Positions 53,027 through 62,118 are shown, counted from the stretch's first letter. The stretch: DNA of 62,118 bases from Candidatus Neomarinimicrobiota bacterium (GCA_022573815.1 JACZTG010000006.1:1-62118), one strand, 5' to 3'. Numbers and translations are program-made. Notes: generated from the sequence alone by a model not told the origin.

Positions 53027-53929
53027 TCATTGATCAAGAAAATCGTATTTGTACACTTCACTTAATTTTCCCACCCGGAATATTTTAGCGATTGGCTTCT
53101 CAGCATAAAGATTTTCAACAACAGTGTGATATTGCGGATGCTCAAATGTAATTGTGTATTCACTGAAGTTTATAACCGGAAATTTTACAGGATTGCCCGG
53201 CTTCAGCTTCAAAGTTTCTTTATCTATCACAAAAGGATTGACGCTTTTCAACGCTATCGCACGCAACGTATCGCTGACAATATAACTTTTTAACAGAGAA
53301 TCTGAAGAAACTATCGAACTCGTCGCTCGAAGAGTAAATGTGGCGCCGTTTATGGTAAGCCCTGTTTCATAGTCCTCCGCTGTAAATGAGAAAGTGGTTA
53401 ATCTGCTGTTTACCACATCATTCGCCATCCGTTTCAGCGCGGACGCCAGGCTGTACAGTGTAATGGGAGAGCTTGCAAGCTCTTCAGTCTCCCCTTTTAC
53501 AAATACGGGAATGTCCAATGTGATAGTTCTTGCATCCTTTATATACGAAAATCCGCTTGTAGTCAAACTACTTTGGGCCGGATTCGGAAATACTTCAGCA
53601 TATATAAAAGGCTGATTTATCCAATACAGATTCACTTTAAACTTTCCGTCAACGCCTGTAATACCTTCGGTTGACGTAATATTCTCATAATCTTTCGATG
53701 CTGCTTCCAAAACGGCGCCGTTTACATACTTGCCCTTCGAGTCAACCAACACACCTTCTACAGAGGCAATATAATTTGCTGATTTTGAATATTCCTCCTT
53801 GTCGAATGTGATGGAAGAGTTTTCCAACAGTAATGTTGCTGAACCGCAAGCGCCGGAAATGAATCCAACAATAACAATAACTGTCAAACCGATAAATTTA
53901 TTTTTAAAAGTTCTGCTCCTACTTTGCAT
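53027..53929 (-). CDS. Lipoprotein with a carboxypeptidase-regulatory-like domain
   Basis: About 300 residues with lipobox FISGAC and an early beta-sandwich of the carboxypeptidase-regulatory type (VEGVLVDSKGKYVNGAVLEA, DGKFKVNLYW), followed by an unrecognised beta-rich part. Such domains sit in outer-membrane or surface proteins. GGGAG lies 7 bases before ATG 53929, better than the ATG at 53935 (3 bases). The start lies inside the end of the ABC permease gene, so they are co-transcribed. Confidence 0.65.
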   Translation of the reverse strand: MQSRSRTFKNKFIGLTVIVIVGFISGACGSATLLLENSSITFDKEEYSKSANYIASVEGVLVDSKGKYVNGAVLEAASKDYENITSTEGITGVDGKFKVNLYWINQPFIYAEVFPNPAQSSLTTSGFSYIKDARTITLDIPVFVKGETEELASSPITLYSLASALKRMANDVVNSRLTTFSFTAEDYETGLTINGATFTLRATSSIVSSDSLLKSYIVSDTLRAIALKSVNPFVIDKETLKLKPGNPVKFPVINFSEYTITFEHPQYHTVVENLYAEKPIAKIFRVGKLSEVYKYDFLDQ

Positions 53930-55616
53930 AAACATTCTCCCGTAATAGCGCTTTATTTCCGATATATATACCGATGACTGCGATAATCAGACTGAACACA
54001 AAAAATATGGTCATAATGATAACCCCCTTCCCCGCGTCATAGGGGAGATTGTTGATTTTAAAATTATAAGTATCCAAAACAGCCGCCGACAACAATGAAC
54101 TTCCTGCTACTAAATAAAACATAGTAATTAAAAAAGCAACAGTTGCTCCCCTCGATGAGGCAATCCTGATGGCGCTGTTCTCTCTTAAATCAGCAAACCA
54201 TGCGCCTGTGCTCAAAGACAGAACAGTTATCACAACACTGCTAATTGCCGTGAATGCAATCGTCATAAGATAAAGCGACTTCCCCGGATTGAGCGCTGAA
54301 GAAGTAAATCCAATCAAAGGCAATCCGATAATCAGTAAGATCAATGACGCTGATATACCCTTGTATCTCAATATGTACTTCATAGTCAGCGGAGCCGATC
54401 TAATAAGCCAGAATGCGTTGCCCTCCTGACTCATAAGCGGGAAAATAAATCTCACCGCTAAAGATACAAGGAAAAATCCACTGAAAATAAAATTCGCAAT
54501 ATACAGGAGAGTCATCCGAAATGGATCGGATATATATAATGAAAGCCCGCTGATGTTAGCGATGTAGATAAATAATAGTACCATAAAAATAATCATATGC
54601 ACCCATTGGCTCGGTTCTCTAACAAAGAGCAGAAAGTCTCGTTTTATCAGAGCCTCAGTCTTTTTACTTAGAGGTAATCTCAATGTTTGAAACGCCTTTG
54701 AAAATCTGTTGTATTGAGATCGTTTAACAAACCATTCTTTCCCACGAGTATTAAGCCACGTCTGATAATAGGCTCTTCCCGAAATTATATATAGAACGCT
54801 TATTAAACTCAAACAGGTAAATATCATAAGGCCGATATGCGGAAGAGCGTTATCATAATCTTCCTCCACTATCGAAAAAAGAGCTCGTGCTGCCCATGTG
54901 CTCGGTACAAACGCCACTTCATTGAAACCTCCGCTTGCAATGGCCGGATGCTCTTCAAAATTCGGGTAGTATTGAATGATTTCCTTTACCTGGTCCACAG
55001 GATGAACAGATTGTAAATAGGAACCTGAGCCCCCCAACGTAAGCAAAAGCATTGCTGTTATAACAATTTTAGAGGGAAGAAGTGTGGACAGCCTTACAAC
55101 TAAAAAGAGCAGAATTGTACCCATAGCAGCTGCCGCAAAAATAAATGGCAGCGCGATACCGAATATGATCAACAGATATTCATTTATACTCAGATTAAAA
55201 AAAGTACCATAAGCTATCAACGCTGCTCCGCCTAACAGAAACATAGGAGTTGAACTTCTGAAAAAATTTTCACTGAATTTGTAAAGGAAAATATTTTCCG
55301 GCTTCAACGGAAAATTGAAAAGATATTCAACTTCATCAGACCTAAAAAAAGCTGAAAATGCTGTTACCGAACTTCCTAAAGCCGTCATAACGAATAGAGC
55401 AAAAAGCGCGGTGGCGAGCAGACTGTGCAAAAATACAACCGGCAGATGAACCTCATTTATTAGAAACGCAAGTGTGATGTTTATTCCTTTGTAAGCGCCA
55501 TACCCGAACAGTGCAAATACGGAAGTAGTGGCTATTTCCATGAATAAAGTACCTTTAGTGAGCCCCTTACCGTATCGCAGCAAAGAAATTAATTTTATCT
55601 TTAAAAATTCAGTCAA
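53919..55616 (-). CDS. ABC-2-type transporter permease
   Basis: A 565-residue membrane protein with about 12 hydrophobic segments in two groups, separated by a hydrophilic region (about 285-335, RSQYNRFSKAFQTLRLPLSK). It has no obvious soluble catalytic motif. The paired ATPase gene overlaps its start by 8 bases, so together they form an exporter of the ABC-2 class. The substrate is unknown; the downstream lipoprotein may be a partner. Confidence 0.75.
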   Translation of the reverse strand: MTEFLKIKLISLLRYGKGLTKGTLFMEIATTSVFALFGYGAYKGINITLAFLINEVHLPVVFLHSLLATALFALFVMTALGSSVTAFSAFFRSDEVEYLFNFPLKPENIFLYKFSENFFRSSTPMFLLGGAALIAYGTFFNLSINEYLLIIFGIALPFIFAAAAMGTILLFLVVRLSTLLPSKIVITAMLLLTLGGSGSYLQSVHPVDQVKEIIQYYPNFEEHPAIASGGFNEVAFVPSTWAARALFSIVEEDYDNALPHIGLMIFTCLSLISVLYIISGRAYYQTWLNTRGKEWFVKRSQYNRFSKAFQTLRLPLSKKTEALIKRDFLLFVREPSQWVHMIIFMVLLFIYIANISGLSLYISDPFRMTLLYIANFIFSGFFLVSLAVRFIFPLMSQEGNAFWLIRSAPLTMKYILRYKGISASLILLIIGLPLIGFTSSALNPGKSLYLMTIAFTAISSVVITVLSLSTGAWFADLRENSAIRIASSRGATVAFLITMFYLVAGSSLLSAAVLDTYNFKINNLPYDAGKGVIIMTIFFVFSLIIAVIGIYIGNKALLRENVYAK

Positions 55617-61058: not shown

Positions 61059-61060
61059 TA

Positions 61061-62118
61061 TTATGCGTTAGGGGTATACTGCACAATCTCCTTAAATCGT
61101 TTCTTCAAATTAGCGTTATTCAGCGCCTCTTCGTATGATATCTTCTTTTCTTCATACAATCTCTTCAGGTCTTGTTCCATTGTAATCATACCTAATTTCG
61201 AACCCTGTTGCAGCATTTGGTAGATTTCGTCAAGATTGTTATTCTTTATTGCTGCGCTAATCGATGGTGTTACGCGAAGTACCTCTTTCGCCAATACGCG
61301 CTTACCGTCAAGAGTCCTAACGAGTTTTTGGGACACGACCACGGTTAATACATCGGCAAGTCTTTCCCGGATACGCTCCTGAACTTCTGAAGGTACCTCT
61401 CCTATTATTCTGTCGATACTTTCAACTGCGGAGGAAGTATGAAGTGTTGAGAAAACTTTATGGCCACTGTCGGTAATTTCAAGGCTGGTAATAATCGTTT
61501 CCGGGTCTCTCATCTCACCAATCACGATAATATCAGGGTCCTGCCTCAAAGCTTGAATCGCCCCTTCCTTAAAGGATAAAACATCAGCGCCAACTTCTCT
61601 ATGTCGTATAATACATCTTGCTGATTCATGAACATGCTCAATAGGGCTACCGATTATGACCATATGAGCGTCTACACTTCTGTTGTTGGCATCAATAATA
61701 GAATCCAGAGTTGAACTTTTTCCTGAACCGGTTATTCCTGTTATGAGACATAAGCCCTGTTTAACATATTTAAGACTTAATGCTTTTGCTATCTCCGGAT
61801 GAAATCCGAATCCGGCAAAGGGCCTTATCTCGGATCCGATCAGGCGCATATTTAAAGCTATATGCCCTAAATCCATATACATATCGCCTCTGAGTCTTAT
61901 ATGACTGTCCTTATATGGTACCGTATAGGAAAAATCAACGTTTCTTTCTTTCGCCAAAAATTCGCGCTGTTTTACCATTATTATGTTCAAAAGCAATAAA
62001 TCCATCTCAAACTCATCCCAATCTCCCGCTTCAGGATCAGGATTTTTTGCGCCTTGAATCCTGTACCATACTTTTCCTCTACAGCCTGTTGAACCCATAT
62101 CAACATCAGATGCGTCTA
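61061..62118 (-). CDS. PilT-like ATPase, 5' end outside window
   Basis: At least 352 residues, open to the right edge; codons before the first ATG (62098) read ASDVD and belong to the protein, so the true start lies outside. It has ASDVDMGSTG (in PilT usually ASDLHL; the His is Asp here), Walker A GITGSGKSS, Asp box IIVIGEMRDPE and His box STLHT, as in PilT/PilU retraction ATPases. It lacks the long N-terminal part of PilB. It would drive the pilus-like assembly encoded next. The C-terminal part (KISYEEALNNANLKKRFKEI) is also typical. Confidence 0.85.
   Translation of the reverse strand, partial: DASDVDMGSTGCRGKVWYRIQGAKNPDPEAGDWDEFEMDLLLLNIIMVKQREFLAKERNVDFSYTVPYKDSHIRLRGDMYMDLGHIALNMRLIGSEIRPFAGFGFHPEIAKALSLKYVKQGLCLITGITGSGKSSTLDSIIDANNRSVDAHMVIIGSPIEHVHESARCIIRHREVGADVLSFKEGAIQALRQDPDIIVIGEMRDPETIITSLEITDSGHKVFSTLHTSSAVESIDRIIGEVPSEVQERIRERLADVLTVVVSQKLVRTLDGKRVLAKEVLRVTPSISAAIKNNNLDEIYQMLQQGSKLGMITMEQDLKRLYEEKKISYEEALNNANLKKRFKEIVQYTPNA

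What the first reader, a model, noticed from the sequence alone, without database searches (positions are those of the whole stretch)
53919..62118. Condensed pilus/secretion-like operon built from fused Pil proteins
PilT-like ATPase, PilM-PilN-TPR in one chain, PilO-PilP in one chain and a short secretin follow each other with gaps of 2-7 bases. Classical type IV pili use separate PilM, N, O, P and Q, so here the inner-membrane bridge to the secretin is reduced to two chains plus gate. No pilin, PilB or PilC is visible in the window, so it could be a non-pilus secretin exporter. An ABC-2 exporter and a lipoprotein follow after a weak hairpin.
Basis: partly seen in the sequence, partly recalled or inferred. 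Interest (0 to 1): 0.7.

Follow-up and report, generated by a model that had tools for sequence, protein, structure and literature searches.

The report
Type IV pilus lacking prepilin peptidase
The operon is one half of a complete type IV pilus machine, shared by a large group of bacteria related to Bacteroidetes, whose pilins seem to be made without the usual leader peptide and whose hosts often lack the leader-cutting enzyme thought to be universal for such filaments.

Summary
The operon is real: PilT-like ATPase, PilM/PilN/TPR chain, PilO/PilP chain and short secretin, with gaps of 2, 4 and 7 bases. It is not a reduced exporter: PilC, PilB, a cNMP-binding protein and five pilin-like genes follow just right of the window. 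The same genome also carries a classical pilus set, so this is a second system ("S2"). S2 is syntenic across the FCB superphylum (Neomarinimicrobiota, Balneolota, Ignavibacteria, KSB1, Calditrichota and others), and its PilB forms a clade apart from the classical one.

S2 major pilins have no leader: they begin MGQQQLLL, with an in-frame stop a median four codons upstream, so the hydrophobic helix starts at residue 6, as in a mature pilin. Of 50 S2-positive genomes, 31 have no detectable Peptidase_A24 prepilin peptidase, including a closed chromosome and isolates in which S2's PilB and PilT are the only ATPases of their family. The peptidase tracks classical prepilins instead (Fisher p = 3e-10).

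Best reading: a type IV pilus variant with born-mature pilins that need no prepilin peptidase, at most methionine aminopeptidase. I found no description in the open literature searched. Everything here is computational.

The parts
61061..62118 (-). pilT-like retraction ATPase (gene continues to contig C6 position 62302, 413 aa)
   Evidence: TIGR01420 E 1.1e-90, PF00437 E 1.2e-32, full ORF
58572..61058 (-). PilM-PilN-TPR fusion, 828 aa
   Evidence: family profile vs PDB: PilN 3jc8 E 6.7e-11, PilM 3jc8 E 0.14; PF05137 PilN in 19 of 39 homologues; TPR residues 743-810
57698..58567 (-). PilO-PilP fusion, 289 aa, GTG start
   Evidence: profile vs PDB: PilO 3jc8 E 2.6e-6; PF04350 PilO in 15 of 40 homologues; AF2 model pLDDT 82, Foldseek ranks 1 and 2 = 3jc8 PilO and PilP
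56425..57690 (-). short secretin, 421 aa
   Evidence: PF00263 E 7.5e-25; TIGR02515 PilQ E 2.9e-23, far below its cut-off; conserved after PilOP in FCB loci
55609..56379 (-). ABC transporter ATPase, downstream neighbour, probably not part of the machine
   Evidence: PF00005 E 1.5e-25; adjacent only in same-family genomes, absent in G020
53919..55616 (-). ABC transporter permease, downstream neighbour
   Evidence: PF16949 E 2.5e-56
53027..53935 (-). lipoprotein (lipobox SGAC); lies directly after the secretin in G020, so possibly a machine part in Neomarinimicrobiota
   Evidence: 38% identical homologue in L030 directly after the secretin

Best explanation
The window holds the retraction-motor, alignment-complex and secretin half of a second type IV pilus machine (S2). 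The other half (PilC, PilB, cNMP-binding protein, minor pilins pil1 and pil2, major pilin pil3, large GspK/PilX-like pilins pil4 and pil5) lies immediately to the right on the same contig. Proposed mechanism: S2 pilins are translated without a leader. The initiator Met, or the Gly next to it after methionine aminopeptidase, stands where the first residue of a processed pilin normally stands, and the hydrophobic helix that anchors the subunit in the inner membrane begins at residue 6. The subunits are therefore assembly-competent without cleavage by prepilin peptidase. PilB (with a c-di-GMP-type N-terminal domain) and PilC extrude the filament through the PilMN/PilOP cage and the secretin, and PilT retracts it. 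Shown by sequence: gene content, synteny, fusions, pilin fold, absent leader, absent peptidase in many hosts. Inferred: that a filament is made, that no other protease acts, that Gln3-5 (or Glu5/Gln5 in pil2) takes over the docking role of Glu5, and the biological use (adhesion or surface motility).
For: Gene content and fixed order pil3-PilC-PilB-(pil2-pil1)-(cNMP)-PilT-PilMN-PilOP-secretin in dozens of loci across FCB phyla. pil3 model: helix 2-55 plus a four-stranded sheet, pLDDT 86; best Foldseek hit T. thermophilus type IV pilin PilA4, prob 0.92; best profile hit geopilin, E 0.034. No leader: 117 of 121 pil3-like genes have no start codon between the preceding in-frame stop (median 4 codons away) and MG. 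Register: pil3 Q5 in 105 of 108 and L6 in 102 of 108; pil2 E5 in 16 and Q5 in 7 of 28. Published leaders are 6-26 aa (PMC4471445). Peptidase: 31 of 50 named S2 genomes lack PF01478; none of 37 reach its cut-off even at E<=10, and the closed chromosome G142 has no hit at all. 25 of the 31 carry pil3, PilB, PilC, PilT, PilMN and PilOP in the fetched locus. In G142 and isolates G156, G159 and G164 the only two PF00437 ATPases genome-wide are an adjacent PilB/PilT pair, shown to be the S2 pair in G142, G159 and G156. PilD presence follows classical GFxxxE prepilins: 17/2/1/30, Fisher p 2.9e-10. MG.QQ N-termini are the same in PilD+ and PilD- hosts. S2 PilB is monophyletic (55 of 55, support 0.91) apart from classical PilB (10 of 10, 0.98).
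Against: No expression, filament or N-terminal protein data exist. Most genomes are incomplete MAGs. An unrelated protease cannot be excluded. Fold match of pil3 is modest (Foldseek E 0.019, TM 0.41). G144 and G146 have PilD without a detected classical prepilin; G138 the reverse (weak E 4e-4). The exact register (Met or Gly as first residue) is uncertain by one position. Some pil1/pil4 homologues have more variable N-termini, and a few ORF starts (e.g. L026 3795-4859, L102) are open to a longer reading.
Confidence: 0.8

Rival explanations
1. S2 pilins are ordinary prepilins with a minimal two-residue leader Met-Gly, cut after Gly by PilD where present, and by an unrelated or very divergent peptidase elsewhere.
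For: Gly before the cut is the classical -1 residue, and the own genome has one PilD.
Against: 31 of 50 hosts have no PF01478, none over cut-off at relaxed E. N-termini do not differ between PilD+ and PilD- hosts. Known leaders are 6-26 aa. Position 5 is polar or acidic counted from Met, not from residue 3. pil1 homologues with P, S, D or N at position 2 have no Gly to cut after.
Confidence: 0.13
2. One reading: a condensed, pilin-less secretin exporter built from fused Pil proteins, serving the adjacent ABC exporter.
For: Short secretin, two fused chains, ABC pair 45 bases downstream.
Against: PilB, PilC and pilins are adjacent and co-conserved; a PilT retraction ATPase is always present; the ABC pair is not conserved beyond the family.
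Confidence: 0.02
3. The machine is a type II secretion-like pseudopilus that moves exoproteins, with no extended pilus.
For: Profile scores of PilC to GspF (1e-47) and PilB to GspE (1e-114) are close to those of the pilus families.
Against: PilB scores best with TIGR02538 PilB (7e-124); a PilT-family ATPase is always in the operon; PilM/N/O/P-type parts rather than GspL/M/C; several major pilin paralogues.
Confidence: 0.05

Closest known systems
Type IVa pilus machine (M. xanthus / P. aeruginosa PilB-C-T-M-N-O-P-Q)
   Same: Same core parts: PilB, PilC, PilT, PilM-N-O-P-type cage, secretin, pilin-fold subunits
   Different: PilM-N and PilO-P fused; no pilin has a leader of known length; major pilin has Gln not Glu at position 5; no prepilin peptidase in many hosts; pilins match no Pfam or NCBIfam pilin model
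The genome's own classical set (C34/C1)
   Same: Also PilB, PilC, PilM-PilN fusion, PilO, PilP, secretin, PilT/U
   Different: Classical G|[FM]T.[MI]E prepilins and PilD; only 33% PilB and 24% PilC identity to S2; separate PilB clade
Akkermansia Amuc_1098-1102 pilus (Verrucomicrobiota)
   Same: Fused PilM-like chain (Amuc_1101) and PilO-fold Amuc_1100
   Different: Amuc_1101 model matches the classical C34 chain, not the S2 chain; whether that pilus has a prepilin peptidase was not tested here
'Generic' systems of the type IV filament superfamily (Denise et al. 2019, PMC6668835)
   Same: Defined by ATPase, platform and major pilin, which S2 has in kind
   Different: The paper does not mention Ignavibacteria, Chlorobi or Gemmatimonadota by name; S2 pilins would not match class III signal peptide models

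Membership tests
Type IV filament (T4F/TFF) superfamily | extension ATPase of the PilB/GspE kind | tested here: met
   TIGR02538 E 7e-124, below the equivalog cut-off; own S2 clade
Type IV filament (T4F/TFF) superfamily | platform protein PilC/GspF | tested here: met
   PF00482 E 1e-31
Type IV filament (T4F/TFF) superfamily | subunits with type IV pilin fold | tested here: met
   AF2 model with long N-terminal helix plus sheet; PilA4 best Foldseek hit, modest E 0.019
Type IV filament (T4F/TFF) superfamily | class III signal peptide: 6-26 aa hydrophilic leader ending in Gly/Ala before the hydrophobic stretch | tested here: not met
   MGQQQ start, in-frame stop median 4 codons upstream; definition from PMC4471445 and PMC10191384
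Type IV filament (T4F/TFF) superfamily | dedicated prepilin peptidase (Peptidase_A24) in the genome | tested here: not met
   absent in 31 of 50 S2 genomes, incl. a closed chromosome; present in the own genome, by its classical PilB
Type IVa pilus | PilT retraction ATPase | tested here: met
   TIGR01420 E 1e-90
Type IVa pilus | PilM-N-O-P alignment complex | tested here: met
   PilN, PilO and PilP by profile and fold; PilM half only weak
Type IVa pilus | secretin of PilQ type | tested here: inconclusive
   secretin domain clear (PF00263), PilQ is best NCBIfam model but far below cut-off
Type IVa pilus | surface filament that extends and retracts | not testable with these tools
   no protein or imaging data

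The most novel reading that the evidence does not exclude
A whole superphylum-wide lineage of type IV pili works with leaderless, born-mature pilins: no prepilin peptidase, no N-methylation, and a Gln3-Gln4-Gln5 (or Glu5) head that replaces the Phe1/Glu5 pairing for subunit docking. PilD processing would then be a dispensable feature of type IV filaments rather than part of their universal core.
Probability: 0.65. Interest if true: 0.87.

Novelty: new variant of a known kind. Interest (0 to 1): 0.78.

Why it matters
Prepilin cleavage by a dedicated peptidase is listed as part of the conserved core of every type IV filament (PMC4471445, PMC10191384). A widespread machine whose pilins start at the mature position, in cultivable hosts with no such peptidase, would show that the step is dispensable. 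It would make the long-open question of what leader removal and N-methylation are for directly testable, and it explains why these pili are invisible to current annotation: the pilins match no pilin model in Pfam or NCBIfam. It also adds a retractable filament to the predicted surface machinery of many uncultured FCB bacteria.

Tried and rejected
1) Non-pilus exporter: rejected, as PilB, PilC and pilins are adjacent. 2) Viral homologues of PilOP: none. 3) Direct profile comparison of S2 PilOP and PilMN with single classical proteins of the same genome: nothing, too diverged; PDB profiles with 39-40 members worked instead. 4) ABC pair as machine part: not conserved beyond the family. 5) Hairpin as terminator: no better than shuffles. 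6) Peptidase missed by threshold: relaxed to E<=10, none of 37 over cut-off; G045 has weak sub-threshold stretches (E 0.005) in 800-aa and 552-aa frames, not followed further. 7) Incompleteness as cause of missing PilD: rejected by the closed chromosome and by the tight association with classical prepilins. 8) Literature: searches on Marinimicrobia, Balneola/Gracilimonas/Ignavibacterium, leaderless pilin, 'no prepilin peptidase', the string MGQQQ, and FCB type 4 filaments found no description; bioRxiv and subscription papers were not searchable. 9) DUF4900 matches pil4/5 homologues but no paper on it was found among the listed results.

Full report
WHAT IS IN THE WINDOW. The window is C6:1-62118 of a 65-contig, 2.39-Mb genome, 96% complete; its nearest named relatives carrying the system are Candidatus Marinimicrobia (Neomarinimicrobiota) genomes. 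The PilT gene is cut by the window edge; the full protein is 413 aa. PilT matches TIGR01420 at 1e-90 and the secretin PF00263 at 7.5e-25. The two fused chains have no direct Pfam match in this genome apart from the TPR, but with 39-40 homologues their profiles hit PilN (3jc8, 6.7e-11) and PilO (3jc8, 2.6e-6; 2rjz, 0.0039). The predicted structure of the short chain (mean pLDDT 82) has M. xanthus PilO and PilP as its two best matches in the PDB. So PilN, PilO and PilP are supported; the PilM half rests on position and a weak hit (E 0.14).

Reading on to the right (L006), a PilC gene starts about 0.6 kb beyond the window (+ strand), followed by a cNMP-binding protein, two pilin-like genes (pil1, pil2), PilB (TIGR02538 E 7e-124) and pil3 (all - strand), then pil4 and pil5 on the + strand. 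The system is therefore a complete extension/retraction machine, called S2 here. The same genome also has a classical system: C34 with prepilins, fused PilM-PilN, PilO, PilP, PilQ, PilT and PilU, and C1 with PilD, PilB and PilC. The classical prepilins carry ordinary leaders and Glu5 (e.g. MKSPSLHSKG|FTMMEMVVV), so the two types can be compared inside one genome.

SPREAD. In Neomarinimicrobiota relatives and, through a scan with the pil3 alignment, in at least 475 matching stretches of GTDB genomes, the same gene order recurs: pil3-PilC-PilB-(pil2-pil1)-(cNMP)-PilT-PilMN-PilOP-secretin. Hosts include Balneolota (with isolates of Gracilimonas and Aliifodinibius), Ignavibacteria, Kryptonia, KSB1, Calditrichota, Cloacimonadota and Gemmatimonadota. 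PilMN and PilOP are fused in all the loci compared. In a PilB tree 55 S2 sequences form one clade (0.91) and ten classical ones another (0.98), rooted with PilT.

THE PILINS ARE LEADERLESS. pil3 is a pilin by predicted structure: one helix from residue 2 to 55, then a four-stranded sheet; the best PDB match is type IV pilin PilA4 of T. thermophilus (prob 0.92, E 0.019). Its genes start ATG GGN behind a Shine-Dalgarno-like sequence in most cases, with an in-frame stop a median of four codons upstream and no alternative start in 117 of 121. There is no room for a leader. Counting Met as 1, pil3 reads M G Q Q Q L L L and pil2 mostly M G [RK] A E [LM] L: polar or acidic residue at position 5, hydrophobic run from 6 (pil3 Q5 105/108; pil2 E5 16 and Q5 7 of 28). 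This is the register of a processed pilin. Reviews give leaders of 6-26 residues and list the peptidase among the conserved core. Whether Met1 stays or is removed to leave Gly2 cannot be told from sequence; Gly at position 2 favours removal (established knowledge of methionine aminopeptidase).

THE PEPTIDASE IS OFTEN ABSENT. In a phylum sample, 13 of 119 genomes have S2 pilins and six of those 13 have no PF01478 hit. In 50 named FCB genomes reached through pil3, 31 have none. With the threshold relaxed to E<=10, no S2 genome among 37 negatives rises over the cut-off, and the closed chromosome CP051242 (G142) has no hit at all. In 25 of the 31, pil3, PilB, PilC, PilT, PilMN and PilOP sit in the fetched locus. 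In G142 and the isolates G156, G159 and G164 exactly two ATPases of the PF00437 family exist genome-wide, an adjacent PilB/PilT pair; in G142, G159 and G156 these were shown to be the S2 genes. So S2 is the only type IV filament system they have. In contrast, classical GFxxxE prepilins (TIGR02532) go with the peptidase: both in 17, neither in 30, peptidase only in 2, prepilin only in 1 (Fisher p 2.9e-10), and by the coordinates the peptidase gene lies within about 20 kb of classical prepilins in 13 of those 17. The pil3 N-terminus is the same in hosts with and without the peptidase. The simplest explanation is that the peptidase serves the classical system and S2 does not need it.

PROPOSED WORKING. 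Shown by sequence: parts, order, fusions, absent leader, absent peptidase. Inferred: pilins insert N-in with the hydrophobic helix in the membrane, without any cut by a prepilin peptidase; PilB/PilC polymerise them, PilMN/PilOP link the motor to the secretin, PilT retracts. The PilB N-terminus resembles the c-di-GMP-binding MshE domain (NF053729 E 3e-9, just under cut-off) and a cNMP-binding protein is in the operon, so second-messenger control is likely. pil4 and pil5 are large and lack an acidic residue at position 5, like the GspK/PilK-type capping subunits described in PMC10191384. Whether the filament serves adhesion, motility or another use is open.

LIMITS. No experiment; most genomes are MAGs; an unrelated protease is not excluded; the pil3 fold match is modest; literature was searched only in open PMC full text, without bioRxiv or subscription papers. 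Novelty is therefore put as a new variant of a known kind, not as proven.

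Noticed in passing
G000 contigs C1:26280, C14:54692, C13:49584 and 50257, C9:78044, C27:20314, C20:2178: Besides the S2 locus the genome holds about seven further pil3-like genes or pieces scattered over other contigs, as if the major pilin had several variants.
   Followed up: no
C34 (L009) 5052-7058: The genome's classical system also has PilM and PilN fused (668 aa), like Akkermansia Amuc_1101, so that fusion alone is not unusual.
   Followed up: partly
L030 10217-14010, L034 9536-11722, L036 14795-15850: The C-terminal TPR of the PilMN chain is replaced or complemented in relatives by LysM-like repeats (L030, also inside PilOP, by eye), an SH3 domain in one PilOP and a SPOR-like tail on a secretin (L034, by eye): swappable wall-binding modules.
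   Followed up: partly
contig C6 65659-67431 (L006 12660-14432): S2 PilB has an N-terminal stretch close to the c-di-GMP-binding MshE motif (NF053729 E 3e-9, just below cut-off).
   Followed up: no
L006 16136-18213 and homologues (A8): The large pilins pil4/pil5 match DUF4900 (PF16241) in 6 of 13 homologues, suggesting this domain of unknown function is a large pilin of this system.
   Followed up: partly
L006 18338-19999 continuing into L007: Next to pil5 lies a large lipoprotein-like protein with repeated carboxypeptidase-regulatory-like segments, a candidate adhesin.
   Followed up: no
L097 (labelled Deltaproteobacteria) and L073 (labelled Desulfobacteraceae): Two S2 pilin loci carry labels from outside FCB; both are small MAG contigs and may be mis-binned or misnamed.
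   Followed up: no
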